Position numbers and translations under genes: made by a program | In this document: positions 9,857-63,444 of the stretch, in pieces | Numbering within the stretch: the first letter of the stretch is position 1 | How the letters are laid out: every line of letters begins with the position of its first letter | The notes under the pieces: model-generated | Told to the model about the DNA's origin: nothing | What the model saw: the letters and a program-made list of their open reading frames with translations, nothing else | The model's database searches: none | Assembly: GCA_035772405.1 (NCBI GenBank) | Contig: JAYKKM010000208.1 | Coordinates: forward strand, 603,001-667,000 | Reading direction: 5' to 3' | Source: Chrysogorgia sp. JL179-B06 | Taxonomy: Eukaryota; Cnidaria; Anthozoa; Scleralcyonacea; Chrysogorgiidae | DNA: 64,000 nt

Positions 9857-9914
9857 CTTAAATGTAGGATAGTCATTCATCACAATGGTTACCATACCAA
9901 CGTAAGGCAAAAAC
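9857..9914 (-). CDS. SEC11: SEC11 exon 5 (membrane-proximal C-terminal block)
   Basis: Acceptor ctcctag, then 58 bp that complete the glycine codon of RARG and read FLPYVGMVTIVMNDYPTFK, with donor AAG/GTAAGC. The family has GF[LV]PYIG[IM]VTI[LV]MNDYP.FK at this place. The exon ends in phase 0, so one more exon of about 16 codons (family YAVL...LVHRE) is expected at lower coordinates. I did not find it in 1-9856. Confidence 0.94.
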
Positions 9915-10059
9915 CTAGGAGAAAATGTATTTAAATCAATGCGTCTTGAGTGACATCGCGTTTTACTGTAGATTAAAATGAATGTTTCATGCATGAATTA
10001 AAAATATAAACAACATTTCCAAACGCAGCCGGTTTGTCTGATTTCTCATCAGACAGACA

Positions 10060-10150
10060 TAGTGTGACGCTACTTTGGCTTAACAAGTCTTTGAACGTAA
10101 CTTTAAAAGTTACTGTCCATGGCGAAAGGTTTCGACACTCTTCATCAATC
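10060..10150. repeat. Segment inverted-repeated at 12615-12675 plus 13701-13745
   Basis: gacgctactttggcttaa...aactttaaaagttactgtccatgg...gtttcgaca matches, in reverse, two blocks that are separated by the TTAA element at 12680-13696. The original second copy was therefore split by that insertion. Nature of the repeat is unknown. Confidence 0.6.
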
Positions 10151-10185
10151 ACTCCAATCCAGTGTCATGTTAATAGATAACTTCA

Positions 10186-11560
10186 CCCGAGATTCAAGAT
10201 TCAAGATTTTTTAATATTCTATACTATTTACAAAAAAATATATTTAGTACAACTGATAATGTAATTAATTAATTAATGTTATTGAAATGAGTTGAAATGT
10301 TGAATAAATTCATTAGTATTCATGCGTAGTGATCAAAGGAGCAAAAGCTTTCGAGTTGATCACTGCCTACGTTAAGTTATAGACAGGGTTCGAATTAGTT
10401 GAGTAAAAACGATGTGCATTTCCCCCCCGAAAACACGATGTCCAAGCGGGCCCTCTCAATACAAGAAAAATAATGGTGTGCAAAAAATTTAATTCCAAAG
10501 GGAATTCTAGGCTGGCATGAGATACTTTCGGTTGCCATTGTTGGTTTAAGAGTTTCAAAAGTTTTATATAAAATCACTAAAATGCACGGCAAAGATCAAA
10601 TTTCAGCCGCCATTTTGCGCGGGCAGCTCCTGGAAATTGCGCGGCCTGTGCGGGAAAGTTATTCGTTCCCAGGGCACTTAAGAGCAGACACGCAAAATAT
10701 GGCGACGACGACAATCGTCAATGGCTTTTCTTTACAAAGCAATTTTTGCGTGGCTGCGGGAAATACGCACAATTTTTTCACCTTTGGGAAATAGGACTGT
10801 TAACTTAACTTATAGTTTGTCAGAACTATTTGTTTGTGTTCAATACTGATACTTTTTTTCTGCACATCGTTTTGAAAAGTGATGTGCAACTTTTACTATT
10901 TGGGCCAAAACGATGTGCAAATTGTACATTGCACACCGTCAATTCGAACCCTGGTTATAGATTCATATTATAGAATGAGCTAAATTGATTGTTTCTATTG
11001 GCTATATAAAAGGACATTTTTGTACCTTTTTTTAAATATATTAAGAGAACATGAACACTTAATATCAATATCAATAGAATCCCAAATGTTTGATGCAATA
11101 AATTTAAACGTGTGTATTCCGTAATTTGTCCTGACTTTTGGTCTAACGAAATTTAATTTTGCAGCATATGTGGTATTATAATTGTGTTGTTGCGATGCTG
11201 GTTTAAGAAACTCAGTAAAGAATGACGGGATATCAGATCTTCCACTAATAATTTTATAACTAAACTCTGCAATTCTCAATTTAAAGATATTATCAAATCT
11301 TAATATTTCCAAAATATTAAAATAAGGTGTAGCATATATGTAAATAATATATTCCTAACACAGTTATTCTGTTTGGTGCGAATTTTTGTTAATTTGGATG
11401 TATATGTATTAACCGAGCTCATTAAACCATAATTTAAATATGGATATACTAGTGTATAGTAGAGTTGCTTTAACATTTTTAAATCAAGGAAATATCTAAG
11501 TTTATTTATTATTCCTATATTTTTTGCGATTTTATTATTAACATGTCTTATTTGTTGTTC
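10186..11560 (-). pseudogene. Non-LTR retrotransposon 3' fragment (RT C terminus and tail)
   Basis: Minus strand 11480-10995 reads YYTLVYPYLNYGLMSSV, KQNNCVRNIIY and then SDIPSFFTEFLKP, RTNYGIHTFKFIASNIWDSI and LNIFKKRYKNVLL, the region after the RT catalytic domain in jockey/CR1-type elements (YL.YG, NS..W..). The 3' UTR continues to a tail of cttgaatcttgaatc at about 10186-10200. A hAT-like element is inserted at 10384-10953. Confidence 0.72.
10384..10953. mobile_element. hAT-like non-autonomous element (8-bp duplication gttataga)
   Basis: Ends CAGGGTTCGAATTAG and the complement AATTCGAACCCTG; flanks gttataga at 10376-10383 and 10954-10961, an exact 8-bp duplication. Such ends are typical of hAT elements. 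Related ends occur at 20685, 50370 and 56394. Internal acgatgtgca motifs recur near both ends. The short open frame inside is not recognisable. Confidence 0.85.
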
Positions 11561-11599
11561 CTAATCAAAATGTTCATCTTTAAGAAATTAAAAATTAAT

Positions 11600-12577
11600 T
11601 TTAAACATTTTCCGTGTTTACATGCAGTTATATAAACACGAGTGGAAGTTGGGGAGAACATGAAATCATAGTGGGAACACGAGCCCGTAGGGCGAGTGTT
11701 TCCACGCGATTTCGAGTTCTCCCAAACTTCCACGAGTGTTTATATAACGTATGGGAACACGAATAAAAATGTTTTCTATTTCTTTTATAAAATAACCCGT
11801 AGAAAGCAAATAAAATGTACAAATATCTTTTTTATCAACACGTTAATTCTCCTTACTGCGTATGATGGCGCCGTGATGTCTAATTGATGGCGTATGATTG
11901 CTAATTGATGGCGTATGATTGCTAATTGATGTCGTATGATGTCTAATTGATGGCGTATGATGGCTAATTGATGGCGTATGATGGCTAATTGATGGTGTAT
12001 GATTGCTAATTGATGGCGTATGATTGCTAATTGATGGCGTACGATGGCTAATTGATGGCGTATGTCTAATTGATGGCGTATGATGGCTAATTGATGGCGT
12101 ATGATGTCTAATTGATGGCGTATGATGGCTAATTGATGGCGTATGATGGCTAATTAATGGGGTATGATGGCTAATTGATGGCGTACGATGGCTAATTGAT
12201 GGCGTACGATGGCTAATTGATGGCGTATGATGGCTAATTGATGGCGTATGATGGCTAATTGATGGCGTATGATGGCTAATTGATGGCGTATGATGGCTAA
12301 TTGATGGCTAATGATGGCTAATTGATGGCGTATGATGGCTAATTGATGGCGTATGATGGCTAATTGATGGCGTATGATGGCTAATTGATGGCGTATGATG
12401 GCTAATTGATGGCGTATGATGGCTAATTGATGGCGTATGATGGCTAATTGATGGCGTATGATGGCTAATTGATGCATGGCGTATCACGATGGCGTAATCC
12501 ATCCATGTTATATAGCCTGATATAAACACGGTAACTGACCAATCACAGCGTGCGTAAGACACGACTTATTTTATAAA
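11600..12577. mobile_element. Repeat element carrying a 21-bp minisatellite, copy A
   Basis: Left part 11600-11860 contains an inverted repeat (gttatataaacacgagtgg...ccacgagtgtttatataac). Then comes a minisatellite, and a right part 12480-12577 with ggtaactgaccaatcacag and gtcttacgcacgc. The same order in reverse orientation occurs at 34008-34690 with a much shorter array. Central minisatellites are found in Helitron-like elements, but Helitron ends were not proven. Confidence 0.7.
11858..12473. repeat. Minisatellite, 21-bp unit x about 29
   Basis: Unit gatggctaattgatggcgta plus one base, repeated about 29 times with small changes and one or two shortened units (near 12060 and 12300). Because 21 is divisible by three, the minus strand stays open and reads HQLAIIR repeated; this is a by-product of the repeat rather than evidence for a protein. 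Confidence 0.95.
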
Positions 12578-12679
12578 TATATATATAGTGAGGTTCTATG
12601 AGTGTATAAATAGGGATCCTAACCTTACAACGATCACCCCAGACTGTCGAAACGTTGGGTCATGGACAGTAACTTTTAA

Positions 12680-13696
12680 AGGGATACTCCAGCCAAAATT
12701 CAAATGTTATTCATATGAAAGATCTTACTGACTTTAGTTTATCTCCAAAGTTTCAGCATTCCTATCACTTTAGTTAAGAAGATATGGCTAGTTGAAGTTG
12801 AAAATTTGAGGATTTTGACGGAATTGACGCCATATTGGTTTTGAAAATATGACGTCTTGCGTGATTCTTTATCAACAGTGGAGTTGTTTTGATGGCGATC
12901 ACATAGTGATAGCTGTTGTGAATGCTCTTTGGAAGAAAATTAGTCGAAATAAACTATTTAGTTCCTCATGCAGGAAAATAGAGGAGCTTCTTAGGCATAA
13001 TACGAGATAGAATCACTCAATGACGTCGTGTTTTCAAAACCAATATGGCGTCAAAATCCTCAAATGTTCAACTTCAACTAGCCATATCTTCTTAAAGGGA
13101 CACTCCGGCCCAAATACAAATGTAGTTCATATGAAAGATCTTAATGACTTTAGATTATTTCCAAAGTTTCAGCATTCCTATCAATTTAGTTAAGAAGATG
13201 AGGCTAGTTGAAGTTGGAGAGTTTGTACAATTTCGACGCCATTTTGTTTCTCAAATATGACGTCACTGAGTGACGTGATCTCGTATTATGCCTAAGAAGC
13301 GCCTCTACTTTCCTGCATGATGAACTAAATAGTTTATTTCGACTAATTTTCGTCCAAAGACCATTCACAATAACTATCACTATGTGATCGCCATCAAAAC
13401 AACTCCACTGACGATAAAGAATCACTCAATGACGTCATATTTTCAAAACCAATATGGCGTCAAAATCCACAAATTTTCAACTTCAACTAGCAATATCTTC
13501 TCAACTAAATTGATAGGAATGCTGAAACTTTGGAAATAAACTAAAGTCAGTAAGATCTTTCATATGAACTGCATTTGTATTTGGGCCGGAGTGTCCCTTT
13601 AACTAAATGGATAGGAATGCTGAAACGTTGGAAATAAACTAAAGTCAGTAAGATCTTTCATATGAACTACATTTGTAATTTGGCTGGAGTATCCCT
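12680..13696. mobile_element. TTAA-flanked palindromic element, outer
   Basis: Ends AGGGATACTCCAGCCAAA and the complement TTTGGCTGGAGTATCCCT, with TTAA at 12676-12679 and 13697-13700. The arms carry gtttcagcattcctatca and ccatattggttttgaaaa. A related element is nested at 13096-13598. Confidence 0.82.
13096..13598. mobile_element. TTAA-flanked palindromic element, inner, nested in a relative
   Basis: Ends AGGGACACTCCGGCCCAAAT and the complement, TTAA at 13092-13095 and 13599-13602. Sequence is a diverged copy of the element that hosts it, showing the family inserted into its own TTAA. Confidence 0.82.
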
Positions 13697-13749
13697 TTAA
13701 AGTTAGGATCAAAAACTCTTTAAGCCAGAGTAGCGTCAATCTGCCTGCC

Positions 13750-14035
13750 CGAGCCAAAACACAGCCTTTACAATACATGGTATTGATCTCGTGTGTCGTG
13801 CATAAGCCATTCCCGAATTACCAATGGAAAACTGGCTTTGCATCTGTCAAAACATTTTTTTCTATATTTCTCAATTTTTCTTTTTTATTCCAAAAAAAAT
13901 ATTTCAATTACCGTTCGATTATTCAACTTTAAAAGAAAGTACTGCAAGTCACTCGTACCAGTAGATAACATAATAATAATAATAACTTCATTAACACTCC
14001 CTTCCCGGGCTTTTCAGGGCCAATTTTTACAGTGA
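13750..14035. other. Stretch without recognisable gene
   Basis: AT-rich; (aat)n at about 13971-13985. Nothing else recognised. Confidence 0.4.
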
Positions 14036-14039
14036 TAAA

Positions 14040-14880
14040 AATCATATAAAAAATCTATATTCTATTAAAACTAATAAATGTACTTATATAATTGTTAAAA
14101 TGATATCATACAATTACTAATTGGAAGATTCAATAAATTGTTCAAAAAGATAAATTTTGAGTTCTCTTTTGAATTTGAAGATGTTCATGTTTTCCGTGAG
14201 ACTACTAGGCAGCGAGTTCCACAAGGATACTGCACGATATAAGAATGTTCGCTGACAGGAGGAAGACGTATAGGCTGGGATGTTTAGCTTATCCTTATTT
14301 CGTGTATTCATAGCGTGGATTGTGGAACGTGTCGTAAACCTATATCTACTAGATAGTCTGGGGCTAGTCCCTTTACACACTTGAAAGCTAAAATACCATC
14401 TCTAAAAGACCATCGGCAGCCAGTTCAATTGCTTAAGGACGGGCGTCACATGGTCAAACTTCCTGGTTCCAGTTATAATTCTTGCCACGAAATTTTGCAC
14501 ACTTTGTAACTGATGGATGCTTTTCTTAGACGTGTTCGACCAAACAGAAGAGCAATAGTATGGTTTGCTGAACACCAACGCGTTGATAACTTTGAGCAAA
14601 GTCCCGGATTCGAAAATGTGTTTAACTCTGTTGATCTGACTTAAACCAGCTATGCAGGCAGAAACAGTGTTCGTATAATATGTTCATCGTAACTCAATGT
14701 CGTGTCCACTTGTACCTAAGGTCTTTTGCAGAGGGAACTGGTGACAACTCTTTCCCCAGTAGGGTGACATGAAATCCTACAGGGACCCTTTGCAGCATCT
14801 GGCGTGTTCCTAGCAACAATACTTTGGTCTTGTTAGGATTTATCATGAGGCTATTATGGCAGCACCACGATATCATTCGA
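14040..14880 (-). pseudogene. L2/CR1-like non-LTR fragment (RT C terminus)
   Basis: In order on the minus strand: NSLMINPNKTKVLLLGTRQM (14694-14876), QSVQNFVARIITGTRKFDHV and LKQLNWLP (14402-14599), and LWNSLPSSLTENMNIFKFKR followed by a stop (14117-14380). This is the palm end, thumb and C-terminal region of an L2/CR1-type RT in three frames. The AT-rich 3' UTR runs to about 14040. Confidence 0.78.
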
Positions 14881-15327
14881 AATCATTCGTCTGAAACCTC
14901 GCAGGTTCGAAATCCCGAATAACGTCGTTTCCCTCTTGGAAAGTATCTATTCTACATATCCGTTGTGACTATAGATCATAAAATCGAATAGTTACTGGTC
15001 CCTCGTAGATATATTTTTGCTTTCCGAGTTCCGACTGTTTGGCGAAATAGTTCGTAATATATATTACCGCTGGGTTAGTGGGATTGGCGGGCTCAACATG
15101 GTTCTGCAGACTACTATCAAGTGCGCACGCACCCTTTGTTTACGCTCTCTGTGTTGCGAACGGAAGTAATTGCCTCTCAGCCTAACTCTTTAACATTCAC
15201 AACCATAAATTTCATTAGTTATTCCATCCGAACCGAGGATTCCTACGAGTAAGTAACCCTTCGGGAAACAGTGCGAAGAACTGTTCAAGATCTCAAACGC
15301 ATCAAAATAGAAAAAAGTCGTTAGCGC
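14881..15327. other. Stretch of uncertain content
   Basis: A B-box-like ggttcgaaatccc is at about 14908-14920 on the plus strand, followed by a segment repeated inverted at 7805-7850. It may be a worn SINE. Otherwise nothing. Confidence 0.35.
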
Positions 15328-15675
15328 AAATAATAATAATAATAATAATAATGTTTACTATTTATTTTTCGCAAATTAGGATGTGTATATGATCAAATGC
15401 GCTTTACAACATCGACAATTTATTCTATTATATTCGGTACCTGGTACCCACTACCCCAATCAATTAACCTTAGCTATTTATTTTTACAGTTTTTATCATC
15501 ATTAGTTTTCCTAACTATTTATCCTAACCCGCCCTGTCAACTTCCCTGCGGGAGGAAACCGGAGAACCCGGAGAAAACCCACGACTTTCGGCAGAGTGTT
15601 CACGAACTCTTTCCACGTGCGATCAAATGTCCGAACACAGGATTCGAACTCTTGACCTCAGAGGTGCAGGAAGGC
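15328..15675 (-). repeat. tRNA-derived SINE, body and T-arm half
   Basis: Minus strand: gaggtcaagagttcgaatcc (anticodon/T-arm part with B box) at about 15640-15660, then the body with ccgggttctccggtttcctc, then a tail of att repeats at 15330-15352. The matching head with an A box (ggtggtctagtggtcagggg) is found on the minus strand at about 16440-16465, beyond the MULE-like element, so the SINE was split by that insertion. Confidence 0.7.
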
Positions 15676-16455
15676 CTCTCTCCTCCGCAGAGGTTCTTCG
15701 GAGATATTTCGGAAGTCGTCGGAGAGATTTGACGAACGAGTCTGCTGGACACAAAGATTGCAGGATTGCGGGCGGGAAAAGAACCTCTGCCAGATTTCTG
15801 TCGTTTTCTTGTTCATATTGTCGTTTTCGTGCGCACGTTGTTTTGTCATGCATATATGATCCATCTTTGGTCCTGTAAGTAACTTACTTGTTTTTTAAGT
15901 GATTTTCGCTGATTTGTGACCATGCGAATTCAAACATGCTGCTTGAATGTGATGGTATAAAACACGCCGTACATACTTTGCCACTCATATACCCAACAGT
16001 TTGTTAAGATTTTCAAGCGTTTCTTCAGCTGCCAACTCCTGTAGCATTTCCTTTCCTTCTATATTCATCTTCGCATCAAATGAACATTTCGGATGCATAA
16101 TATTAATGCGATAATGATGGCCTAAACCACTTGGTTCAAATAATATTGCTCTTGACTTTATACATTCCACATTTGGACAACAAACTCTTCCAATCGTTAA
16201 AGCTTTTAAGTAATGTTTACTTGGACTTGTATCGCGTAACTTCAAAATATTCGACATTTTATAAATTTGCAATGTAACTACCGAACCCCGTAATTCGTAA
16301 TCCCAGTTTGGAAATAATTTAGTAACTCCCCTGATGCCGCCATATTGAGACAGAAATCTGGCAGAGGTTCTTTTTTCCCTTTCTCTTGCCTTTTCCGCCC
16401 GCGATCCTGCAATGTTTGTGTTCAGCTGACTCGTTCCACGAAGAACCCCTGACCA
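15676..16455. mobile_element. MULE-like element inserted in a SINE head
   Basis: Left end CTCTCTCCTCCGCAGAGGTT matches the 9-bp-TSD element at 5948. Arms of about 100 bp pair: 15735-15805 (gattgcaggattgcgggcgg, aacctctgccagattt) with 16355-16425. The right extreme end is damaged, so no exact duplication can be shown. It carries a minus-strand open frame at 15985-16257. Confidence 0.65.
15985..16257 (-). CDS. Small Cys/His-containing ORF inside MULE-like element, unknown
   Basis: A 90-residue frame from ATG at 16257. I do not recognise it. It starts MSNILKLRDTSPSKHYLKAL, has a CCPNVEC motif near residue 28 and HYRINIMHPKCS near residue 48, and ends in an acidic helix-like stretch (MLQELAAEETLENLNKLLGI). 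The cysteine and histidine spacing could bind zinc. Composition is protein-like rather than AT-rich noise, and it lies between the paired arms of the element, so it may be element-encoded or a captured exon. No upstream splice signals were resolved. Confidence 0.45.
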   Translation of the reverse strand: MSNILKLRDTSPSKHYLKALTIGRVCCPNVECIKSRAILFEPSGLGHHYRINIMHPKCSFDAKMNIEGKEMLQELAAEETLENLNKLLGI

Positions 16456-16474
16456 CTAGACCACCGAAGCCCCT

Positions 16475-17006
16475 ATACTGAAGAAACATTTCTCAAAATG
16501 CTCAGGAATCACAAATTTGGACTTCCTGACATGATAATTGTATCTCTAAGAGTATTAAATTGGTTTACCTGAACGGCTTTACCTTTTAGAGAAAGTAAAC
16601 CATAGAAATACCGAGCGAGGAGTTAGAATAAAGATTTAAAGCGGGCTAACTTGAGGATATATCGACATCAAAACTTAGCAGCTTCAGTAAATTAGTTCGC
16701 TTGATCATAATAGACAAAAGCGTGGGCGCCATTAAGGGTAATTAAAGGATTACATGCAACTCGACACACAAAAGATGGCACGCGTATTTCCATAAACACA
16801 GAATAAATAATCCCAATTTGTTGAATAATATATTACAAAACTGTACCTTAGCGCACGTGATACAAAAGAAAAAAGGTCATTAATGTTCATTAAGAGTTTA
16901 AACTGTCAAACGTCAATAGCAAACGATAAAATTAACAATACGACACAGATATTGAGATAAATAATATGTATTTCGCTTCAAAGTTATACAGAAAGCATGC
17001 ATTACG
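16475..17006. other. Stretch without recognisable feature
   Basis: No motif, repeat edge or credible frame recognised. Confidence 0.4.
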
Positions 17007-17186
17007 CTATATTTCAATAAGATCTGCTTCTTGTGTATAGTGATTTTTGGGTAATCTAATTACTCTTGGATTTTGAGGGTCACTCCTAGGAGTGAACGTG
17101 ATATAATGGTATTCATCTGGGCTTTTTTTACCTGAATTACATTCGAGCACACCAGTATAATCTGGATTTCCTCTCTCCAGGTTCAT
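17007..17186 (-). CDS. Possible exon or small ORF, unknown (59 codons)
   Basis: Minus-strand frame from ATG at 17186 to TAG at 17007: MNLERGNPDYTGVLECNSGK, then PDEYHYITFTPRSDPQNP and HYTQEADLIEI. The composition looks like real protein. Upstream (17190-17270) two direct copies of gacgaaagtgatatagatga encode acidic DESDIDE in other frames, which suggests a duplication-prone acidic linker before this segment and a frameshift between them. I cannot name a family. It may be a decayed captured exon. Confidence 0.35.
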   Translation of the reverse strand: MNLERGNPDYTGVLECNSGKKSPDEYHYITFTPRSDPQNPRVIRLPKNHYTQEADLIEI

Positions 17187-17322
17187 CTATATCACTTTCG
17201 TCCCCTATTATCTCCATGCTCTCCTTCGCTTTCATCTATATCACTTTCGTCCACATCGGTGTCACCTGTGTGTCGTGTCGCTCTGGATATTCAACCGTGG
17301 GAGGTGTTAAAAATATACCTTA

Positions 17323-18033
17323 CAGGCTGTCCAAAATTGCGGTAACGAAACGCGCGTTACCGCAAACACAGTTTTACAGTAACGATATCACGTTACTCCA
17401 GAAGGAAATATCGTTACCCAAGAACCAAAAAATGTGAAATATTAAAACAAACGCTTTTTTCGTGATGTCTTTCCTCCAGACATTTTTGTAATTATTTCAA
17501 TGGTTCTTATTTTGCCAGAATGTTCTTTAATTATGTAAATGAGGCCGTGTGCTTGAGTCATTTACTGGCTTTAGTGTTCTGAAATGATGTAAACAACTTG
17601 GCAATGTTAAAGTTAAACTAAGTGTTTTTTTTTAAACAAGGGCTATAATATAATAAATGGCTTATTAACAGATTGCCAATAATATATATGTACTAGCAAA
17701 GTTTACAGACTATGTATCCCATCATTGCACGAGAACTAGGTTGTTTTATTTTGTTGAACACACGTGGAGATCGGCTTAGTTTTGTGTCATATAATCTTCC
17801 GTTTTCATTATTATAAGCCGATGTGACAGTAATGATGGCTGAGCCAGGAACGAGTGTCTCACTAAAAAGTTTCAACAAATGGCCCTTTAAGGACGATTTT
17901 GAACGCTTGCGGTAACGGTGACGTAAATGCGTTTCCCTAAACACAGATCTGCGTAAACGATATTTCGTTTCCCACAACGTGATCTGGCGGTAACGCAATT
18001 GCGTTACCGCCCCATTTAGTTTTCGACAGCCTG
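17323..18033. mobile_element. CGTTACC-repeat DNA element, 5-bp duplication cctta
   Basis: Ends CAGGCTGTCCAAAA and TTTTCGACAGCCTG; flanks cctta at 17318-17322 and 18034-18038. Both ends are filled with cgttacc/ggtaacg copies, likely transposase-binding repeats. A relative in the opposite orientation spans 42738-44180. No transposase recognised; superfamily not assigned. Confidence 0.7.
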
Positions 18034-18624
18034 CCTTAGGTGTAGCAGGAACCCCGGGATATTTGTTGGTTTGAAGCCACCAAAGGATTTTGCATAGGTT
18101 GGGTAGAACGTGGTTTCTTTGAAGCCATTTCCATGCTATTGACCGTATAGTTAAGAAACTCTGAAGTTGATTTTGAAGATTATTTGAAAGTGAAGTTGAT
18201 TATGAAGTTGATTCTGGAATGACTGCAAACGGTATAATTCATTCGAATTGAGTCTATTGTTTTCATCTGGTGTCAACTGAGGCGAATGCATAATATTGTT
18301 CATCGGTTTACCCGAGTTGTACAGTACAGGACGGGTGGTTGTTGATACGATCGCTTTCGAATATAGCGGTTCAGGTTTTGTGAGCCAGAGGTATTTTCTT
18401 AGGTATTAGTCGATAACAATTCTGTAACAATGTTTGCCTTTTTCCAAAAAAGGTGCGCAAAATATATATCAACCTTTCGTCAGAAATGGATCTCTGCCGC
18501 GGCGAGATTATCGACTAAGCGCGGATCGAGATTACGATTTGAAAATTAGTGACACGAACGAGAACTGTGTTATTCCTGTTCAACGACACGAGTAGATTTA
18601 TTTATTTATTTTTATTTAAGAATC
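18034..18624. other. Stretch without recognisable feature
   Basis: Short direct gaagttgatt repeats at about 18160-18215; nothing else recognised. Confidence 0.4.
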
Positions 18625-18628
18625 TTAA

Positions 18629-19095
18629 AGTGCCCATAACTCTCAAAATGTTTTATTGTTTGGAAGAACTTTTAAAATGATAAAGTAACTTCTTTTCAAG
18701 ATTTTCGTTTCTTTGCTTTCTTTTTGAGATACTGTATATCAGTTTGTTTGATATGCAAATGTATGGAATTACGTCACACATGCATAATGACTTATTGGAG
18801 AAATGTGTATATCTCTTTCATTCTCGAATGAAATCCTTTAAAATCAAGAAGTTTGGTGTTGTGGAAGAAACGCATACACGTGTTATTCACACTTTAGTGC
18901 TTTTATTTCATGAACGCAAAGATATATAACATTCTCTGATAACTCATTATGCGTGTGTGACGAAATTCCAGATATTTGCATATCAAACAAACTCAAAAAG
19001 AAAGCGAAGAAGTGAAAATCTTCAAAAGAAGTTACTTTATCATTTTAAAAGTTCTTCCATATAAGACAATAAAAATTGTTGAGGTTAGGGGCACT
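18629..19095. mobile_element. TTAA palindromic element, AGTGCCC family, copy 1
   Basis: TTAA at 18625-18628 and 19096-19099; ends AGTGCCCATAACTCTCAAAA and the complement of AGTGCCCCTAACCTCA. Arms include gataaagtaacttcttt and tttgatatgcaaat. Copies 2-4 are at 32814, 41403 and 46902. Confidence 0.85.
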
Positions 19096-19404
19096 TTAAC
19101 GGTAACCACGTCAGTCCACATAGGTCTGTTTTTCACGGGGCCGTGTGTTATTTACAGAGAAGAATGCAAAAATGTTAAAAACTAACTAAATAGTAAATGA
19201 GAATCTAAAATTAGATGTATAAAAATTATGTACAATAAATCACAGTATGACTTTCTTATAGATACTTGTTTTCGTGATTTAAGTTCCACAACATGGCACC
19301 TCGATACCCAAAAGTTAGGCTTGGGGAGCATTAGAGTATTGTTACTCCTCAAATCGTAACAGTCCGATTAGATAACCTGAAAAGTCGCTGAGATTTGAAT
19401 CTCT

Positions 19405-19534: not shown

Positions 19535-19572
19535 TTGGCGACGAGGATAATCTGGCAACGATCGCAGAAAGT

Positions 19573-23697: not shown

Positions 23698-23705
23698 AGG
23701 AGAGT

Positions 23706-50330: not shown

Positions 50331-50369
50331 GGTTCATCAACATCAAAGAAAAGAACAAACACACTTTTC

Positions 50370-51191: not shown

Positions 51192-51194
51192 CTT

Positions 51195-55400: not shown

Positions 55401-55769
55401 TTGATGAAATTAGGAAGAAATGTGAGTTATGAATCGGTTTTGAATTTAGCAACTATGCGCTCGCTTGAACATAGGAGAGTCGAGCAGTCATTAATAATAT
55501 TCTATAAAAGTTTCAAGCAAAATGGCCCTACCTATATTTCTAATTTATTTAAACTTCGTAATACTCCATATGCTTTAAGAGGTAGTGGGCATAATGTGGT
55601 ACAGGATGTGTATAACAGTCGTTATTTGCATAATTCCTATAAGTATATTATTTCCCATATCTGGAATCAGTTACCACTTTCTGCCAAGTCATCTACCTCA
55701 TTATTTGAATTTAGAAACCAGATTCACCAATCTGATTTACTTGGCTGTCAATGTTATGCATGCATTTAG
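52437..55769 (+). CDS. CR1-like retrotransposon polyprotein: 2A-like, PHD-type finger, endonuclease, RT
   Basis: About 1110 residues, no stop. The first ATG in this frame is 52437; the frame is open to 52410. Residues 31-39 are GDVHINPGP, a 2A-like motif. Residues 47-99 form a C4HC3 PHD-type finger (C47, C50, C63, C66, H71, C74, C96, C99). About 165-380 is an APE-type endonuclease: IAHLNINSI, AISESKID, ACYRSPG, FIGDFNMDM, SLLDVILVS, ISDHDLIYV. About 615-860 is the RT: KSTGPDGISPK, YRPITILSAIPKLFE, FLRGHSCATAL, VVAIDLSKAFDSI (box A), CGVPQGSLLGPLLF (box B), LRLYADDTTQY (YADD), LKILGVTLDEELNF. The thumb has YVLPHLEYCSPL. The protein ends in QCYACI. The endonuclease nicks the target and the RT copies the element RNA there. 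Confidence 0.9.
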   Translation: MVVVKAYLSTRIPYSSKSMGTFQLQRLALSGDVHINPGPSVKEKPKCPTCQRTIAVNHRAATCDSCKKIFHIKCGEITSKQYRVLTSAVSIVKWTCPACALASLASLPFSTLSDEMFNNLFSDKTGSNSEIDYSQLINKSDSNSAEFTASEWFNTNINSYYKNNLKIAHLNINSIYGKIDEVIDLLNACEFDVLAISESKIDNSVSSSLLQHPEYRIIRRDRKRGAGGILVYIRSTITAVRRVNLEPEGVESICLDIKGCGNSWFIVCACYRSPGKCKISDFIPSCADAAERMYAKRKEIIFIGDFNMDMLIGQNNPQRPNQDLSNFMEQLCLTNLITNPTRVTKSTKSLLDVILVSHPDRFITNGNLHLGISDHDLIYVVRKQKLPKTKAKSIEFRSIKNLNHAAFKTDLGTIPWDSSYIFDNVDDVWHHWASLYSSVLDKHAPVQKIRLRTNQLPWINPNIQKQMRLRNRLYKKFRRFSTEANWLNYKVQRNKVTSLKRDAVKNYCSDAALCTSSRSVGQFWKKMKPLLPTSKSSVDTSVMNLLEEGKVVTEPSAVFNDYFSKPVVVDSILNMSEQDFMNHMSVKSITNRCYDFDFSFQQVNTVYITDLLSNLNERKSTGPDGISPKLLRISASVIADPLANLFNYCITKCAWPREWKCGDVTPAHKKEEVTNKKNYRPITILSAIPKLFEKVKFDQLYEKFAPTFSENMSGFLRGHSCATALVKLTDDWRDALDKKNDVGVVAIDLSKAFDSICHNLLLAKLKAYGLQDSALQLMRSYLQHRKQRVKCNGVYSDWLPIRCGVPQGSLLGPLLFNIFVNDVNYTVGNSSLRLYADDTTQYAHDTSPAILEYTLNQDICTLSAWFNANYLHINGEKTQAMILGKSQYSYDLKVDNQTIKTEDTLKILGVTLDEELNFKPYIKDTLRKAFAKIAALRRLKRMVPKETLIKLYKAYVLPHLEYCSPLLLGISKTLKNKLENANYYGLRTLMKLGRNVSYESVLNLATMRSLEHRRVEQSLIIFYKSFKQNGPTYISNLFKLRNTPYALRGSGHNVVQDVYNSRYLHNSYKYIISHIWNQLPLSAKSSTSLFEFRNQIHQSDLLGCQCYACI
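52527..52553 (+). other. 2A-like ribosome-skipping motif GDVHINPGP
   Basis: Fits D[VI]ExNPGP except that E is H. 2A-like motifs near the N terminus are known in APE-type non-LTR elements of several invertebrates. The preceding residues (FQLQRLALS) are leucine-bearing, as is usual upstream of 2A. If active it would release the first 38 residues (or the longer hydrophobic leader) from the rest. Confidence 0.6.
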
Positions 55770-55916
55770 TATTAGTATACAGATTATTAATTAATTAATA
55801 CCATGTAAATATTTTTTTATATTGGTAAATAGGTAATATTGTCGAGCACTTCTATCATGAGCCCCTGGCTCGAGTGATTGGGCAACCACACTCTGTGTCA
55901 TTCGACATTAAATAAA

Positions 55917-55942
55917 TTATTCTATTCTATTCTATTCTATTC
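55917..55942. repeat. (ATTCT)n tail of the CR1-like element
   Basis: Five tattc units directly after the 3' UTR; CR1-group elements end in short tandem repeats rather than poly(A). Confidence 0.85.
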
Positions 55943-56163
55943 AGAAAAAGCATGGACTGATATATTAATATATAGAGTATATATGCATGTATCAACATGT
56001 ATGTGACGTAACGTGAAATTGTTTGGACGTGCACTGAAGTGCTCCGCGAACTATTTCGTATTTCATTATTTCCTGTACGATATTGAACGGGATACTTCTC
56101 AAAGTGGTTGTTAAAGTGTTCTTCTATTGGAATCTGAGAAACTCCAAGTATCCTTTTCGCCAT
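55927..56163 (-). CDS. Short ORF, unknown
   Basis: ATG at 56163 with a good context (attATGGCG on the minus strand). Reads MAKRILGVSQIPIEEHFNNH, FEKYPVQYRTGNNEIRNS, then becomes AT-rich and hydrophobic (ILYILIY). The first 40 residues look protein-like and the rest does not, so it may be a first exon with an unseen donor, or chance. Confidence 0.25.
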   Translation of the reverse strand: MAKRILGVSQIPIEEHFNNHFEKYPVQYRTGNNEIRNSSRSTSVHVQTISRYVTYMLIHAYILYILIYQSMLFLNRIE

Positions 56164-56393
56164 CTAAATAATATTTAGTGAAATACCGCATTGTCTATAC
56201 CGAGATTTTAACGTTTGTTTTTCAAGCTCGCGCAAAAACGGTTTGGTCTTCACACGCAAGCAAACGAAGCACGCTACGTATATGCTGACGACAGTGCACG
56301 TGCTTCAATTTGATCTGTGCGCATGCGTGCAGTAATTAACATGGAATGAAACTCATCGAACTGTTTTCGATGTAGACTGCACACACGCCATTG

Positions 56394-57214
56394 CAGGGGT
56401 CGAAATTAAGAACATTTTCTAGTTGCCAATGGGCAACTAGAACTGCGATTTCAGGTTGCCCAGAAAAGATTTAGGTTGCCCACTTCTTATGATCGACACT
56501 TTCTTTGTGCTTCTTTATTTTAGTAGAAAACTACTACAGCTCTTCACAAGATTATTTTCAGTTTTCTTGTACTTTTTACAAAGCGAACTCTTCCTCAATA
56601 TATTTTAGCCATTCGCGATTGTTTTTCCACGCCGGCAGAAATACTCGCTCTCGATCTTTCTCATAACTACTTTGCTCGCTTCCGCGGTAGCTTTTGTCTT
56701 TTTGGCCGAGTTTGTATCACTATTGGTCAGTTCATCAGTGTTTTTTTGATCACTGTTACGTTTTCTGGACGTGGTAAACCCGAATAGCACTTTCTACAGA
56801 TGACGTCAGTATCCATGTTTGTCCGCATTTACCCATAATTATTGCGGCCATAACAAAATAAATAGCTATTTGCAATAATTTGTGAGTCAAATTTGGTTTG
56901 TTTGTCCGTATTTTGAGCTATAAATAGCAACCAGACACAGTGCTATTGTAGTAAACTCATTTAAATAAACAAGTACTGTCATGACGGACGTGCGCGTGCT
57001 TTCCAATCGTGGGAAACGCGGGTCGCGAGATTACGGGAGTTTGCGCGATCTGCGTGGTCGCGAACACGAAAAGTCGCTGGTTCGTTCGTTCCACTGAAAG
57101 TTATTCGATCATCTATGAAATTGGGTTGCCCGAAGGGCTACCAAGTGCCAAAATTTAGTTGCCCAAAAAATTTGATTGCCCCGGGCAATAGGCAATCGCT
57201 AATTTCGAACCCTG
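56394..57214. mobile_element. hAT-like element with transposase N-terminal remnant
   Basis: Ends CAGGGGTCGAAATTAAG and CTAATTTCGAACCCTG. Just inside are repeated ggttgccca/gggcaac motifs at both ends (gttgccaatgggcaac; ttgcccgaagggc). The minus strand at 56590-56790 carries KRNSDQKNTDELTNSDTN and, one frame away, FLPAWKNNREWLKYIEEE, which resembles the F.P.W...R.WL motif at the start of hAT-type (ZNF862/KIAA1586-like) transposases. Flanks are not an exact duplication. Confidence 0.65.
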
Positions 57215-57439
57215 CCTGTACGCACAGTTGCACACTAGTAACAAGAGTACAGTAAGTTTGTATACAGTACTGTACATCTGTATCTATGAATATGTGTATG
57301 TAATCAATACTGTATTGCCAAGATTATTTTCTTGTACCAAATCTAATAATTCTTATTTTGTGCTTCATAGCCGGATGTGTTGCAAGTAAATATGGTGAGG
57401 CCTTTGAAAATGTGCTGGAATAAAATGTGTGTCTTACCT

Positions 57440-57594
57440 TCCTGGTAGGATCCTTAATTACAGGATCGTATAGGATCTTGGACAAGATCCCACAGGATCC
57501 TGTTTAGGATGCTAGGGATCCTATTAGGATCCTACTATGATCCTAATAGGATCCTGTTCCTAATAGGATCCCGTTCAGGATTTCTACCAGGGTT
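57440..57594. mobile_element. Small element built of AGGATCCT palindromes
   Basis: Ends CCTGGTAGGATCC and GGATTTCTACCAGG. Between them aggatc occurs about ten times (taggatcctattaggatcct and similar) in both orientations. No coding content. Confidence 0.7.
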
Positions 57595-57599
57595 CTCTT

Positions 57600-58079
57600 A
57601 CCCTTTGTGATTATTTTTAGACATGAGATGGAAAGGATGGCACAGACTTTCATGTCTGAAACCAAATGGTTGGAGTTATTGAAATGGCAGGCTAAAGGTT
57701 TGTCAACATCATTGTTCCTCACAGAACGAAGATGTTCAGCAAACCTTTCTGAAAAGCATCATCCAGTTTCATAAGCCCTGCTTATTTTATTTCATCTTGT
57801 CTTACTCTGATGAAGAGCTCCACTTGAAACATTATTATTTTGTTCCTAAAATCTTGGCAGTTCACCACCTTCTCACTTTGCTAGATATCCAAAACACTGA
57901 CTGCGCAGCACTCGACTTTTTTACAGCTTTAAATATCTTTGTTTTTCAAAGAAAATTGTTGGTGCTTGTGTGGTCTAGATCTAGTCCTTAGCATCAAGAT
58001 TGCATGGATTAAAATCAGAGGTTTCAGGTTTGTGTCTTTTGGTTTCTTTACTGGGCATCGGGGTTAACTTACAGTACTG
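57600..58079. other. Stretch without recognisable gene
   Basis: A plus-strand frame near 57620-57700 (MERMAQTFMSETKWLELLKW) looks protein-like over about 25 residues but is not recognised. A segment agatgttcagcaaacctttt recurs at 60137. Confidence 0.35.
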
Positions 58080-58109
58080 CTCAGAAATGACCTAACAAAA
58101 ACCGAGCCC

Positions 58110-58220
58110 AAGACGCGATCGTTTTGCGGTTCGTTTGCGTGCGTCTTGCGGTTCGTATGCGTGCGTCTTGCGGTTCGTCTGCATGCGTCTTGCGGGTAGT
58201 ATGTGTGCGTCTTGCGGTTG
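58110..58220. repeat. 22-bp tandem repeat x about 4-5
   Basis: Unit gcggttcgtatgcgtgcgtc plus tt, four clear copies then decay. Mirrored by inverted copies at the other end of the element. Confidence 0.85.
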
Positions 58221-58280
58221 ACTGAATCTGCGTTCCACGAGACGCAAGGTTCGTAGTGTGTTCGTCTCACTTCGGAACGA

Positions 58281-58445
58281 ATGTCAACAACCACAAGTAG
58301 CGACAGTGTTTACAGTAATAGTGATGGTAAGCTTTCGGAATACGCGAGGAACATTATTTCATTGAAGTCTACCGGAATTTCAACCGTACGAATTACGAAA
58401 ATGCTTGAAGAAGGACCTTGGAACAAACTTGCGACATTGAATTAA
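58281..58445 (+). pseudogene. Truncated HTH protein start (Tc1/mariner-like transposase)
   Basis: 54 codons from ATG: MSTTTSSDSVYSNSDGKLSE, then YARNIISLKSTGISTVRITK and MLEEG, then decay. The LSEYAR.II.LKS.GIST..I.KMLEE part has the form of the first helix-turn-helix of Tc1/mariner transposases. The rest of the protein is missing. Confidence 0.5.
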
Positions 58446-58844
58446 ACCACTTTGATGTAAACATACTTACCATGCAGTTTGATAATCAGTGCCTCGTATT
58501 CGCCATTCTCGTACTCCACCTTCCACATGTTGATCCTTATCCTTAATTCTATTTGTGGACAGAATTGCCATAGTTTTATCCGCCTCGAAAAAAACTAACA
58601 TTCTCTTTGGTGGAGCGCGTGTCATCAAACGGAGACTCATTCTTACAATATTATTTCGTTACTTTTCCTTGGTGCTTTTATCGGCTCTGCTTTTAAGCCT
58701 GTTTATGTTAAATTATGCGGCCACTTAGGACAAAAATATTGTACGCTTGTGACTTCCGCACGTTTTTGTGACATGAGTCATATATATATATATATTGATA
58801 ACATATGTATATATTACAATGATACAGGCGAAAGGTGGTGAACT

Positions 58845-59400
58845 TAGGCTGTTGCAATATATCGATATTTTCGATAAATATCGATATTTAAAAAATACGA
58901 TATTCGATTTTTCGCATATCGAAAATATTGAAAGTTTCAACTTGACAACTTCATCTCTCTTTTTCGGCAATTAGTTTCGGTAAAGAAACGTGTATGACGG
59001 CATTTGCGAATTCACTGAGTGATGAAAGCGTATCGGTTTAAAAGCGAGTAGCGTGGTTGTACAAACACAATAAGTGTGATTCATAACTATAATTTTAGCA
59101 ACACCACCCACTATTGGGATTAACACAAGCGGCGGTTGAGCGCTTGAAAACAATAACTGATGACTCAGTCCATGTAAATGATTTTCCGATAACTGATGAC
59201 ATGTAAATGATTTTCCTCTCCTTTCGCAGTATGTCCGATGATATCTAGCGATTTCAGCAAGCAGCGCTTCGACTGAAAGACTGTTCAGCAAAGCCGGACA
59301 AATAGTAACGGCAAAGCGAGTCCAGCTTAAGCCGAAGAAGGCGAACATGTTGGTGTTTCTTGCCGAAAATTTATGAACAAACGTGCGAAATCGTTTATGC
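58845..59400 (+). mobile_element. hAT element remnant with ATATCGATA-rich end
   Basis: Left end TAGGCTGTTGCAATATATCG followed by repeated atatcgatatt. Plus-strand 59250-59372 reads ASSASTERLFSKAGQIVTAK, then RVQLKPKKANMLVFLAENL and stop, the hAT C-terminal domain. Related to 44289-44965. Sits inside the Tc1-like element. Confidence 0.72.
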
Positions 59401-60284
59401 TTTAAGCTTGTAAATAATAATATATTATAGATATTTAAATTTGTCGGCTGGTCGTTGTTTGTGTATTTTCACTTGTCTGAAGATGATTTTGTTAATAAAA
59501 TCATATCACGTTTACAATAGTTTCCTCTTGTTTTAACTCCTATATTGCGTTTTTAAAGATGGCATTTTTCGGAATATGTTTTATTTTATAACTTTTCAAA
59601 AATTCTAACACTGCTATAACGGTAGATAACAATATGGTAACACACAGTAAGTTATAACACACGACAAGGTCTCCGACAAAAAATGTCAGTCCACGTGTGT
59701 CAACAAAGTTTCACTTATTAGGAATTTGACTAGGATCTATTTATTCCGCTTTAATAAACGCACACATAAAATGTGTCGAAATTTGATATCAACAAACAAT
59801 ATAGGTATCAGCGTTTCCGACGTATACACTCGGAACAACTTCGGTTATGCCGACTCTTGCGTCCGGTTGAGTAAGGACCGCCCCTGACGCAACGGAGATG
59901 CCAGACGAACGCAACCGAGACGCAAGACGAACGCAACCGAGACGCAGACGCACTGTTAGGTTATTTCTGAGGATTAGAGCAAGTTACCATAAAACTGTAG
60001 GTCATATTGTAGTATGTGTGAGACTGGGCTAGATATCCAGCTACCTGCCCAGCCCTACTATGTAGTCACAGTGCATAATATCATATAATATCATTTTATA
60101 TTATTATTACCCCCACTTTGTGGTATTCAAGCTTGAAGATGTTCAGCAAACCTTTTGAATACCACATGCGAAAACCAAATACCAAGCACGAAAACCAAGT
60201 ACCATGTGTGAAAACAAAACACCATGTCCGAAAACAAAAACAAGGCTGTCAACAATGGAGTAACATACAGAGATATTTTAGTGT

Positions 60285-60316
<32 letters not shown>
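60285..60316. repeat. Homopolymer G run, 32 bases
   Basis: 32 consecutive G on the plus strand. Assembly length is likely to be inexact. Confidence 0.9.
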
Positions 60317-60318
<2 letters not shown>

Positions 60319-60489
60319 GTGAAGTCGACAAGCAGGTAATCAATGATCACATTTTTAGGGGGTCCTCTCCTGAAAACGTTTGAAATCTAGAAGCTCGGAA
60401 AGACAATTTGCAGCAATTTGAGCAAATGTTTTCATCTATACAATTCTACAGCGAGCATAGTTCAAATGAATCCGAGCATGCATGCTGCT

Positions 60490-61030
60490 CTTTGGAGGTC
60501 AACCGATGATCGGATCGGACATGGGATTTGGCCGATATTTTACAACATTTTGGCAAAAACATCGGACCGGTAAAATATCACTACCATAGTCGATGTTAAG
60601 TTTCTAAATGTTGGCATTTATAAGAGTTTTTCTGCAGAAGACAATAGCTAAAAGATCTAGAACACTAGATGACTAGGTTCCATCTCCTGCTGGGAATTGG
60701 GTGAACCTGTTTATTTAGAAGACAGACCGGAAATTTCAGAGAGCGAATTGTGAAAATGCAACATTTGTGGCATCGGTTCGATGGAATTTAAAATATATGT
60801 ACGACGTGTCACTTTCAAAATAAAACTAACAAATAAATTATTAAATTATCTGTGCCTCGTGCATTACTAGTCAGTATCTTATTCCTTCCTACTAACATAA
60901 TAGTTTAAATATGTATAGATTGTGACTAATCTGGGCTTTTCCCCATGCAGTAATCTCTAAAAACATTGGATCGGACATCGGCTGATGTTATAAAAGAAAT
61001 ATCGGCCATCGGGTCGGCAAGCAAACCCCA
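60490..61030. mobile_element. Possible hAT-like element (ATCGG-rich ends)
   Basis: ccgatgatcggatcggacat at the left and attggatcggacatcggctg, atatcggccatcgg at the right; end style like 43376-43890. Terminal complement and duplication not resolved. Confidence 0.4.
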
Positions 61031-61139
61031 TTTCAGTTCACCTCTTACCAAGTGCCACCATTTTTTGCACCTAGTGCTGACAGATGGATTTGGGAACCAA
61101 TCTAACACTTGCGTGGCAAGGGTTTGATTATAACTCTTG

Positions 61140-61775
61140 CACGGACGTTGAGGGAGGCCCGAGTCAGCAATATATCAGCGGTTTCACATAACAATGTTCA
61201 TCAGATACTCCACCAGGACACTCGTTCCTCACCTTGTTAGCCACAATTTACTGGACTTGTTAAGGCATTGTAAGCAGCAAATAATTGGATTGTAACCGAC
61301 CCCAAAACAACAAAGATCCTAACCCCCCACCTATTTACTAAGGACTTAATTATGGGAAAAGATGGTGGGGGATCAGTTGGGTCGTGTCTTAACTCTTAAA
61401 ACTCGTTAGGTGGGGGTTAGGATTAGAAAAGTTGTCATGTGGGCTGTTAGGGGGTTAGGATCTTTGTTGTTTTGGGGTCGGTTACATTATCCAATAATTT
61501 ACTGCTTACAATGCTTTGACAAGTCTAGTAATTTGTGGCTTACAACATGATGGATGGCTGGGTTATCATGTCTAAACATTATCAACGATCCTTTATAGTT
61601 CCAGTTATCGTACTAAATTTGTAGTTATAGTGTTATACGGAAATTTATATATTTTTAAATCTATCCCATCTTGGCAAGAAATATTCTCCTCCTGGAGTAT
61701 CTGATTTTGTTTTCGAGAACTTTTATGGGAAACCGCTGATACATCGCTGACTCGGCCTCCCTCAACATCAGTCGA
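61140..61775. repeat. Large palindrome, about 300-bp arms
   Basis: From the outside in: gttgagggaggcccgagtca, gatatactgaccagg-type middle, gcattgtaagcagcaaataa, gtaaccgaccccaaaacaac, aaagatcctaaccccc; each pairs with its complement on the right (gactcggcctccctcaac ... tttgttgttttggggtcggt). The innermost 35 bp are perfect (61292-61328 against 61449-61485). Foldback-type element or hairpin insertion; outer duplication not resolved. Confidence 0.8.
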
Positions 61776-61805
61776 AGAGTTACAGTATACCCCAAGGGTT
61801 TAGGG

Positions 61806-62270
61806 CAGGGTTGTAGCTGGACCAATTTTAGTGGTGGGCAGGCGATATGCCGACGGCCGGACGCGGAAGCTAGCACAACAGGGCGGACCGGTAATATAAT
61901 AATAAAGTGCGGTCAAGCACACATGGCTGAATGAATACGGCAAGCCGCTGTGAAACAAACAATTGGCACTAGTCCCAGGCCTCTAACTCAACGGTTTTCT
62001 AAGAATTAATGTTAATTTCAAAGAACACCGTGAATCTATTTTTGAACTAATCGTGGAGTTTACATGAAACTTGTGATTAAATATGCGTTACAAATCACAA
62101 AATGACACAAAATACTTTATTTTCGAATGAAAAGCACTAAAATATTGACATATTTACTATTTGCGTTAGTGAATTCTGTGCTGGGCGGCAGGGCTGAGAT
62201 TGACCAAGAGTGGTGGGTGCAAATCGTGAGTGGTGGGTGAGTGGGCCCGCCCACCGCAGCTACAACCCTG
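61806..62270. mobile_element. hAT-like element, duplication gtttaggg
   Basis: Ends CAGGGTTGTAGCTGGACC and GCAGCTACAACCCTG; flanks gtttaggg at 61798-61805 and 62271-62278, exact. A second, partial copy of the right end plus duplication (ggcccaccgttagctacaac, gtttaggg) follows directly at 62279-62310. Confidence 0.85.
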
Positions 62271-62310
62271 GTTTAGGGGGCCCACCGTTAGCTACAACCC
62301 TGGTTTAGGG

Positions 62311-63162
62311 GTTGGCTAACACTTCAGGCACAGCCATTTGTAAAATCTTGTGTAGATGAAGCCGATCTATAGTCATACTAATACAATTGGAAAAAAACAC
62401 ATAATTAAAATTAGCAACGCTTCTCCTGATTTTGAGATGGCTCAGCCCCCAATTTAAAATTTGGAAGGGGGGGGGGGTGGGCTTTGGATCTGAAGCCCCC
62501 CAGATTCCTACACCTCTGACATAAAGACAGTATTCAAGATTGTTTCGGTATAATATATAATTTATTGACCCGAAGCTTGGGGAATTTGACGAAATATTAC
62601 ATATAATGTACCGATCAATTAGAAACATCACCATCCCCCCGGACATACCCTGGGAATTTGACTATAAACCGTGTCCTGGGAGTAGGGAATTTGACGTTCG
62701 AGGCCTTTTGCTGGGTGGGGAATTTGAACCAGAAGTCTAGAATTCGCGCGTTTTCAGGGTGGAATTCCTGCTCGCGGTCAATCTCGTTCCCATAGCCTTC
62801 GCCGGCTCGCGGTTTACTTTTTTACAATGGCGGCAGGAATCAGTTGAACAATTGTTATTGTTATATTTTAAAGGGAAAGATTCCGCTTTCTTCAAGGACT
62901 GGTTTGTCAAAATTGGAATGGAATTTTTGTACTTCCAGTTTCATAATTTGGTTGGTGCCATGGTCGGGCGTTTGCCTGTTTAATTTCTTGCTACAGTAGG
63001 GCATTTGAACACTTTTTTGCCCAGGGGGATGGGAATTTGAACGACCACATTTTCAAAAGTTCGAATTCCCGGGGTCTGCCGGGGGGGGGGGGGGGGGGTG
63101 GTGAAGTTTCGAATTGATCGGTATATAACATTTACTATAAAATATTAATTTCGTCAGTATAC
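62311..63162. other. Stretch with GGGAATTTGA repeats and G runs, no gene
   Basis: The motif gggaatttga occurs at about 62651, 62686, 62718 and 63031, with ggaatttgac at 62580. G runs at about 62467-62476 and 63081-63098 (18 G). Open frames here are not recognisable. It is the donor-side start of SEC11 intron 2. Confidence 0.5.
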
Positions 63163-63272
63163 CTTAGCACAACAACAATAGGACTCTCACTACCTGACAC
63201 AACCATCAATCCTTTCCATATCATCAGTGCTGACGAAACGATCATACCGAAATTTAACACTTGATAATAAAG
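63163..63272 (-). CDS. SEC11: SEC11 exon 2 (membrane anchor)
   Basis: An acceptor at ctatgtag precedes the exon, which reads [10 protein letters not shown], then [14 protein letters not shown] and [10 protein letters not shown]. This is the single transmembrane anchor of SEC11 followed by the conserved [10 protein letters not shown] stretch that leads into the catalytic serine. The exon is 110 bp and ends after AG of a serine codon (CTAAG/GTATAC), phase 2. It was not obvious as an open frame because both edges are spliced. Identity is very clear; the downstream boundary is canonical. Confidence 0.94.
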
Positions 63273-63393
63273 CTACATAGAAATTATACAACAATTTATA
63301 TGAGAATAATAGTATAGTAGTTGTATGGGTAGTCTTGTAGTTGTAGATGAGGAGATTAAAACTTAATATATAAATATAGTCGTTCCGTCCTAC

Positions 63394-63444
63394 CTGTCGT
63401 TTATTCATTCGCCTAACCTCGTCGAACCAGGACGATATGTCCAT
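63394..63444 (-). CDS. SEC11: SEC11 exon 1 (start codon, cytosolic N terminus)
   Basis: The minus strand reads MDISSWFDEVRRMNKRQ and then a CAG/GTAGGA donor. The DEVRRMNKRQ part matches the conserved N-terminal cytosolic segment of animal SEC11 (family: D[DE]VRRMNKRQ). The ATG at 63444-63442 is preceded by an A-rich run and is the natural start for this family. The exon ends in phase 0, and the next exon starts with CTT TAT TAT, continuing the family motif. The intron that follows is only 121 bp, unlike the three giant introns further on. Confidence 0.93.

What the first reader, a model, noticed from the sequence alone, without database searches (positions are those of the whole stretch)
9857..63444. 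Whole window is one SEC11 locus inflated by transposons
Five short exons (438 coding bases or so) spread over 53.6 kb encode a nearly complete signal peptidase catalytic subunit in the right order, strand and phase. The exons are intact while almost everything between them is TE. A short secretory housekeeping gene with introns of 14, 21 and 18 kb but one of 121 bp is a strong example of intron growth by nested insertion.
Basis: partly seen in the sequence, partly recalled or inferred. Interest (0 to 1): 0.8.

Follow-up and report, generated by a model that had tools for sequence, protein, structure and literature searches.

The report
Octocoral SEC11 gene with transposon-rich introns
A gene for the signal-peptide-cutting enzyme SEC11, probably from a soft-coral relative, is split over more than 53 kb by introns that hold many mobile elements, an ordinary pattern, but one intron ends in TG instead of the usual AG right beside the enzyme's active site.

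Summary
The exons are real. Five minus-strand exons (489 nt, 163 codons) join in phase into a SEC11A orthologue, 93% identical to the octocoral Dendronephthya gigantea, so the host is probably an octocoral. No convincing last exon was found in the window. Introns 2-4 are 14.3, 20.6 and 18.1 kb; intron 1 is 121 bp. "Almost everything between is TE" is not shown: self-repeats plus TE-like frames cover 24,598 of 64,000 bases (38%), some of it labelled by eye. They include an intact LINE, a hAT fragment and TTAA-bounded palindromes (17 pairs; 2 in total over 20 simulations). Long TE-bearing introns are a known kind. Of the donor/acceptor pairs enumerated, only GT with this TG keeps the Ser-Gly before the catalytic serine; the nearest AG, 6 nt on, deletes them in frame. 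Consensus error or allele, real TG-AG tandem site, and recent loss of function all remain open; transcripts would decide. A second SEC11 copy could not be sought: the genome search did not complete.

The parts
63394..63444 (-). SEC11 exon 1 (from ATG; MDISSWFDEVRRMNKRQ), donor GTAGGA
63273..63393 (-). intron 1, 121 bp, GT-AG, no TE identified
63163..63272 (-). SEC11 exon 2, donor GTATAC
48878..63162 (-). intron 2, 14,285 bp, GT...TG; holds the intact LINE
48902..48908 (-). branch-point-like TATTAAC about 25 nt before the intron end
   Evidence: sequence; motif recalled, not tested
48878..48879 (-). non-canonical TG at the 3' end of intron 2
48872..48873 (-). nearest downstream AG, 6 nt inside exon 3; its use would delete Ser54-Gly55 in frame
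48728..48877 (-). SEC11 exon 3 (holds Ser56 and His96; catalytic roles recalled)
28098..48727 (-). intron 3, 20,630 bp, GT-AG
28127..28578 (.). TTAA-bounded inverted-repeat element; 29 nt lie between it and exon 4
27978..28097 (-). SEC11 exon 4
9915..27977 (-). intron 4, 18,063 bp, GT-AG
9857..9914 (-). SEC11 exon 5, donor GTAAGC
1..9856 (-). visible part of intron 5; no convincing last exon found
52401..55942 (+). LINE with an unbroken 1122-codon frame (PHD, endonuclease, RVT_1; 52401-55769) and a (TATTC)5 stretch at 55918-55942 taken as its 3' tail
22202..23719 (-). reverse transcriptase fragment (RVT_1)
44404..44754 (-). hAT transposase C-terminal fragment
2814..3527 (-). fragment of a dispersed element protein (Penelope-like by recall)
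   Evidence: 404 database relatives; no match above cut-off in Pfam
24142..24918 (.). TTAA/TTCA-bounded relative of the element at 47343-47961, lying within a retroelement-like reading frame
   Evidence: frame identity by eye
11603..12513 (.). element with a 21-bp tandem array (28.8 units); the related copy near 34360-34640 has 4.0

Best explanation
This is the orthologue of SEC11A, the catalytic subunit of the ER signal peptidase complex, in what is probably an octocoral whose own SEC11 was not among the listed database hits. Five exons lie in the window and at least one more is expected beyond it. Shown: intact exons in phase, introns of 14-21 kb, and TEs of several classes inside the introns. 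Inferred: the introns grew by successive TE insertion while selection kept the exons and splice signals, and the gene is transcribed and spliced into a working protease. The TG end of intron 2 is unresolved. My personal shares are: consensus error or allele about 0.45, working TG-AG tandem acceptor about 0.35, recent loss of function about 0.2.
For: Spliced 163-codon frame without stop. E = 5.2e-87 to human SEC11A; PF00717 and PF10502 above cut-off; TIGR02228 above cut-off. 93% identity to D. gigantea SEC11A-like over the whole query, with stony corals among the next hits. Ser54 to Met57, His96 and Asp122 are the same in all 12 aligned sequences, the window's included. Of the ten listed relatives with an odd C-terminus, six (P0025, P0026, P0028, P0030, P0035, P0056) change right after YP[KS]FK, as does rat P0116, the same place as the window's exon 5 end. 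TEs in introns: LINE, hAT and RT domains; 14,986 bases of self-repeat with 0 hits in 3 Markov controls; 17 TTAA inverted-repeat pairs, 2 in total over 20 controls.
Against: Intron 2 ends in TG, which does not fit an ordinary working intron. Four of the ten odd C-termini (P0039, P0044, P0053, P0065) do not break at FK; P0053 breaks one residue later. No transcript evidence was available. 62% of the window was not assigned to any repeat or TE frame. Uniqueness of the locus was not tested (genome search did not complete).
Confidence: 0.85

Rival explanations
1. A decaying duplicate: the working SEC11 gene lies elsewhere, and this copy has recently lost its intron 2 acceptor.
For: TG instead of AG at the acceptor; the nearest AG removes Ser54-Gly55, and LSGSMEP is present in 120 of 120 listed relatives.
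Against: No stop or frameshift in 489 nt, five GT donors and three AG acceptors; 93% protein identity to D. gigantea.
Confidence: 0.12
2. The TG is a consensus error or a segregating allele; the true or common sequence has an AG acceptor and splicing is ordinary. (Compatible with the best explanation.)
For: One base separates the observed end from an AG end. Heterozygosity of about 0.9-1.6% is reported for Paramuricea clavata (passage of PMC7467007) and 1.13% and 1.44% for two other octocorals (passage of PMC11959691). Human AG-to-TG mutants are reported to activate nearby AG sites and not the TG (passage of PMC2374985).
Against: The 489 coding bases and the 1122-codon LINE frame carry no frameshift, so indel errors do not look common here.
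Confidence: 0.45
3. A real TG-AG tandem acceptor 6 nt apart: TG use gives the intact active site, AG use gives a form two residues shorter. (Compatible with the best explanation.)
For: The only enumerated combination that yields VVVLSGSMEP is GT with this TG. A branch-point-like TATTAAC lies about 25 nt upstream. TG acceptors are reported only together with an AG within 28 nt (passages of PMC2374985).
Against: That paper reports TG acceptors in 36 human genes and never as the sole site; here the TG would have to supply the only form with an intact motif. No transcript was seen.
Confidence: 0.35

Closest known systems
SEC11A of Dendronephthya gigantea and human SEC11A (PDB 7p2p chain A)
   Same: Alignment over nearly the whole query; Ser54-Gly55-Ser56-Met57 kept; a boundary after ..YP.FK recurs in several relatives
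   Different: Last exon not in the window. Gene lengths in other species were not fetched; from memory human SEC11A also spans some tens of kb, which would make 54 kb unremarkable
Repeat-rich octocoral genomes (Eunicella verrucosa 46%, Paramuricea clavata 49%, Paragorgia papillata and Chrysogorgia sp. about 48% TE)
   Same: LINE, DNA-element and unclassified repeats in comparable overall share (passages; section 14 of PMC11959691)
   Different: P. clavata's reported median intron is 382 bp, far below these introns; D. gigantea has only about 12% repeats
TG 3' splice sites of U2 introns (Szafranski et al. 2007, PMC2374985)
   Same: TG close to an AG (6 nt; reported limit 28 nt), GT donor
   Different: There TG was an alternative site; here it would be needed for the intact active site. 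No transcript supports it here

Membership tests
SEC11 / eukaryotic signal peptidase I | Full-length sequence similarity to SEC11 | tested here: met
   E 5.2e-87 to human SEC11A; 93% to D. gigantea; PF00717 and PF10502 above cut-off
SEC11 / eukaryotic signal peptidase I | Catalytic Ser, His, Asp (Ser56, His96, Asp122; roles recalled) | tested here: met
   The same in all 12 aligned sequences, provided intron 2 is spliced at TG
SEC11 / eukaryotic signal peptidase I | Complete gene with the C-terminal end | tested here: inconclusive
   No convincing last exon in the window; short query
SEC11 / eukaryotic signal peptidase I | Expression and peptidase activity | not testable with these tools
   no transcript or protein data
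Introns lengthened by TE insertion | Introns contain identifiable TEs of several classes | tested here: met
Introns lengthened by TE insertion | Most intron sequence is TE | tested here: inconclusive
   24,598 of 64,000 bases identified; the rest unassigned
Introns lengthened by TE insertion | Shorter introns in close relatives | not testable with these tools
   the DNA collections offered are prokaryotic, viral or plasmid by description; no octocoral DNA was searched
TG-AG tandem 3' splice site | TG within 28 nt of an AG | tested here: met
   6 nt; limit from a passage of PMC2374985
TG-AG tandem 3' splice site | Both sites used in transcripts | not testable with these tools
   no transcript data
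TG-AG tandem 3' splice site | TG conserved in orthologues | not testable with these tools
   only proteins of relatives were available
piggyBac-like MITEs | TTAA ends with terminal inverted repeats | tested here: met
   17 pairs, several overlapping or nested in one element, against 2 in total over 20 Markov controls; family assignment recalled, no transposase found

The most novel reading that the evidence does not exclude
An essential catalytic motif (Ser-Gly before the catalytic serine of SEC11) depends on a TG 3' splice site, while the nearby AG gives only a form two residues shorter. That would break the reported rule that TG sites are merely alternative, and splice choice could tune signal peptidase output.
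Probability: 0.25. Interest if true: 0.6.

Novelty: new member of a known kind. Interest (0 to 1): 0.3.

Why it matters
As a TE-bearing gene it is a clear but ordinary example of a short housekeeping gene kept intact while mobile elements collect in its introns. The TG acceptor, if real, would be a sharp natural test of whether a TG site can carry an essential exon junction; if not real, it is a warning about judging splice sites from one assembly.

Tried and rejected
Other donor/acceptor pairs for intron 2: GT, GC or AT donors within about 60 nt of the exon 2 end, with AG acceptors from 90 nt before to 59 nt after the exon 3 start (plus the observed TG), were enumerated, keeping phase and no stop. 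Only GT with the observed TG gives VVVLSGSMEP. U12-type splicing: the donor GTATACTGA is a weak fit to the U12 consensus as I recall it; judged by eye only. A second SEC11 copy in the window: tblastn gave the five exons, and otherwise matches with E of 0.49 or more.

Host genes in the introns: 33 of the 49 stop-to-stop ORFs of 100 aa or more were scanned with Pfam at E-value limits of 0.001, 0.1, 0.01 and 0.01. Three ORFs matched above the curated cut-off: the LINE, the hAT fragment and the RT fragment, the last also with an ALKBH8_N label. Two others had sub-cut-off labels only (ZapD, Baculo_LEF-11). Sixteen ORFs were not scanned, and shorter exons of another gene would be missed. Rfam at gathering scores gave no match. 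PHROGs gave nothing for three ORFs. No target-site duplication for the LINE was found among exact words of the 3' flank in the 1.7 kb searched upstream.

Paper searches: a first search on octocoral introns listed 20 of 411 papers, none on an octocoral genome; one search found octocoral genome papers. TG splice sites with coral terms listed one paper, on dinoflagellates. SEC11 gene structure: none among the 8 listed of 10 papers. Giant introns: 5 papers listed, abstracts' beginnings seen. Seen as passages only: PMC2374985, PMC4176328, PMC10243833, PMC7467007, PMC6447388, PMC4981915; PMC11959691 as passages and section 14. No paper was read whole.

Full report
WHAT IS THERE. Joined, they give 489 nt and 163 codons without stop (a first script had three exon ends one base off). 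The protein matches human SEC11A in the PDB at E = 5.2e-87 over query residues 6-163, has PF00717 and PF10502 above cut-off and TIGR02228 (archaeal-type signal peptidase I) above cut-off. The best of 120 listed database hits, out of 5542 that passed, is SEC11A-like isoform X2 of the octocoral Dendronephthya gigantea at 93% identity over the whole query; stony corals are among the next hits. The source is therefore most probably an octocoral; this is inference from one gene. The last 16 residues of the D. gigantea protein have no convincing match in the window, though so short a query is a weak probe.

CONSERVED GENE STRUCTURE. One search flagged ten of the 120 listed relatives as odd at the C-terminus. 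Six of them (Timema P0025, P0026, P0030 and P0035; P0028; P0056) leave the SEC11 sequence right after ..YP[KS]FK, as if reading into an unspliced intron, and rat P0116 also changes there. That is exactly the window's exon 5 end. The other four (P0039, P0044, P0053, P0065) do not; P0053 breaks one residue later. I recall, but did not check, that human SEC11A has about six coding exons and spans tens of kb.

THE INTRONS. Introns 1 to 4 measure 121, 14,285, 20,630 and 18,063 bp, and 9,856 bp lie to the left of exon 5. The window compared with itself gives 14,986 bases in repeats at E <= 1e-6, and no hits in three Markov-simulated windows (14,590 with longer words). TE-like frames bring the union to 24,598 of 64,000 bases: 33% of intron 2, 40% of intron 3, 46% of intron 4 and 34% of the visible intron 5. 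Of the eleven TE-like regions entered in that count, three have a Pfam match above cut-off, and one (2814-3527) has 404 database relatives but no Pfam family. The other seven, including a Gypsy-like stretch, are my own reading. So 38% is a working figure and not a repeat-library annotation. Older or single-copy TEs would be missed, and 'almost everything is TE' is neither proven nor excluded.

KINDS OF ELEMENT. The LINE at 52401-55769 has an unbroken 1122-codon frame with PHD, endonuclease and reverse transcriptase domains. Its best database hit has 56% identity over 99% of the query; only the 7998 candidates that shared most words were scored. A (TATTC)5 stretch at 55918-55942 may be its 3' tail. 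Near the frame's start lies GDVHINPGP, which resembles 2A-like peptides; 2A-like sequences are known from non-LTR retrotransposons (passages of PMC4981915). Seventeen TTAA-bounded inverted-repeat pairs were found, several overlapping or nested within one element, against two in total over 20 simulations. They resemble piggyBac-type MITEs (recalled). Only 29 nt lie between one of them (28127-28578) and exon 4. An element at 24142-24918, related to 47343-47961 but with about 130 extra bases, interrupts a reading frame that looks like retroelement pol. This is the best sign of nesting, but the frame is identified by eye only.

HOW UNUSUAL. In Paramuricea clavata, an octocoral of about 607 Mb with 49% repeats, the median intron is reported as 382 bp (passages of PMC7467007; that assembly is fragmented). 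The introns here are far longer than that median. But repeat shares of 46-49% are reported in several octocorals, and intron gigantism is a named phenomenon (PMC6508613, search listing and start of abstract). I therefore call this a new example of a known kind.

THE TG ACCEPTOR. Intron 2 runs from a GT donor (63162) to a TG (48879-48878). The TG junction gives VVVLSGSMEPAF; LSGSMEP is present in 120 of 120 listed relatives. The nearest downstream AG lies 6 nt inside exon 3 and would give VVVLSMEPAF, without Ser54-Gly55. No other enumerated combination restores the motif. Szafranski et al. 2007 report TG acceptors in 36 human genes, never as the sole site, within 28 nt of an AG, and report that AG-to-TG mutants activate nearby AG sites instead (passages of PMC2374985). 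A 2014 survey mentions GT-TG introns in GNAS and TSPYL2 (passages of PMC4176328). The site here fits the distance rule, but the TG would have to be used for the intact protein. With no reads available, error or allele, real tandem site, and loss of function all stay open. The shares I give (0.45, 0.35, 0.2) are personal estimates. The novel case is set lower (0.25) because it also requires that the TG route be the one that matters.

NOT TESTED.

Noticed in passing
window 52401-55942: A LINE with an unbroken single frame (PHD, endonuclease, RT), a 2A-like GDVHINPGP near its start and a (TATTC)5 stretch after its 3' end, suggesting a young insertion.
   Followed up: partly
window 11874-12474 and 34389-34473: Two related elements carry the same 21-bp tandem unit with very different copy numbers (28.8 and 4.0).
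   Followed up: partly
window 28127-28578: A TTAA-bounded inverted-repeat element with only 29 nt between it and exon 4.
   Followed up: partly
window 12676-13700: Compound palindrome: TTAA-bounded inverted-repeat units lie inside one another, perhaps a same-family nested insertion.
   Followed up: partly
window 38388-39094: A 373-bp unit is repeated 1.9 times in tandem at 97% matches, inside intron 3.
   Followed up: no
window 27212-27717 and 48195-48671: Two related repeat copies (about 85% identical) in introns 4 and 3; the second ends about 56 bp from exon 3.
   Followed up: no
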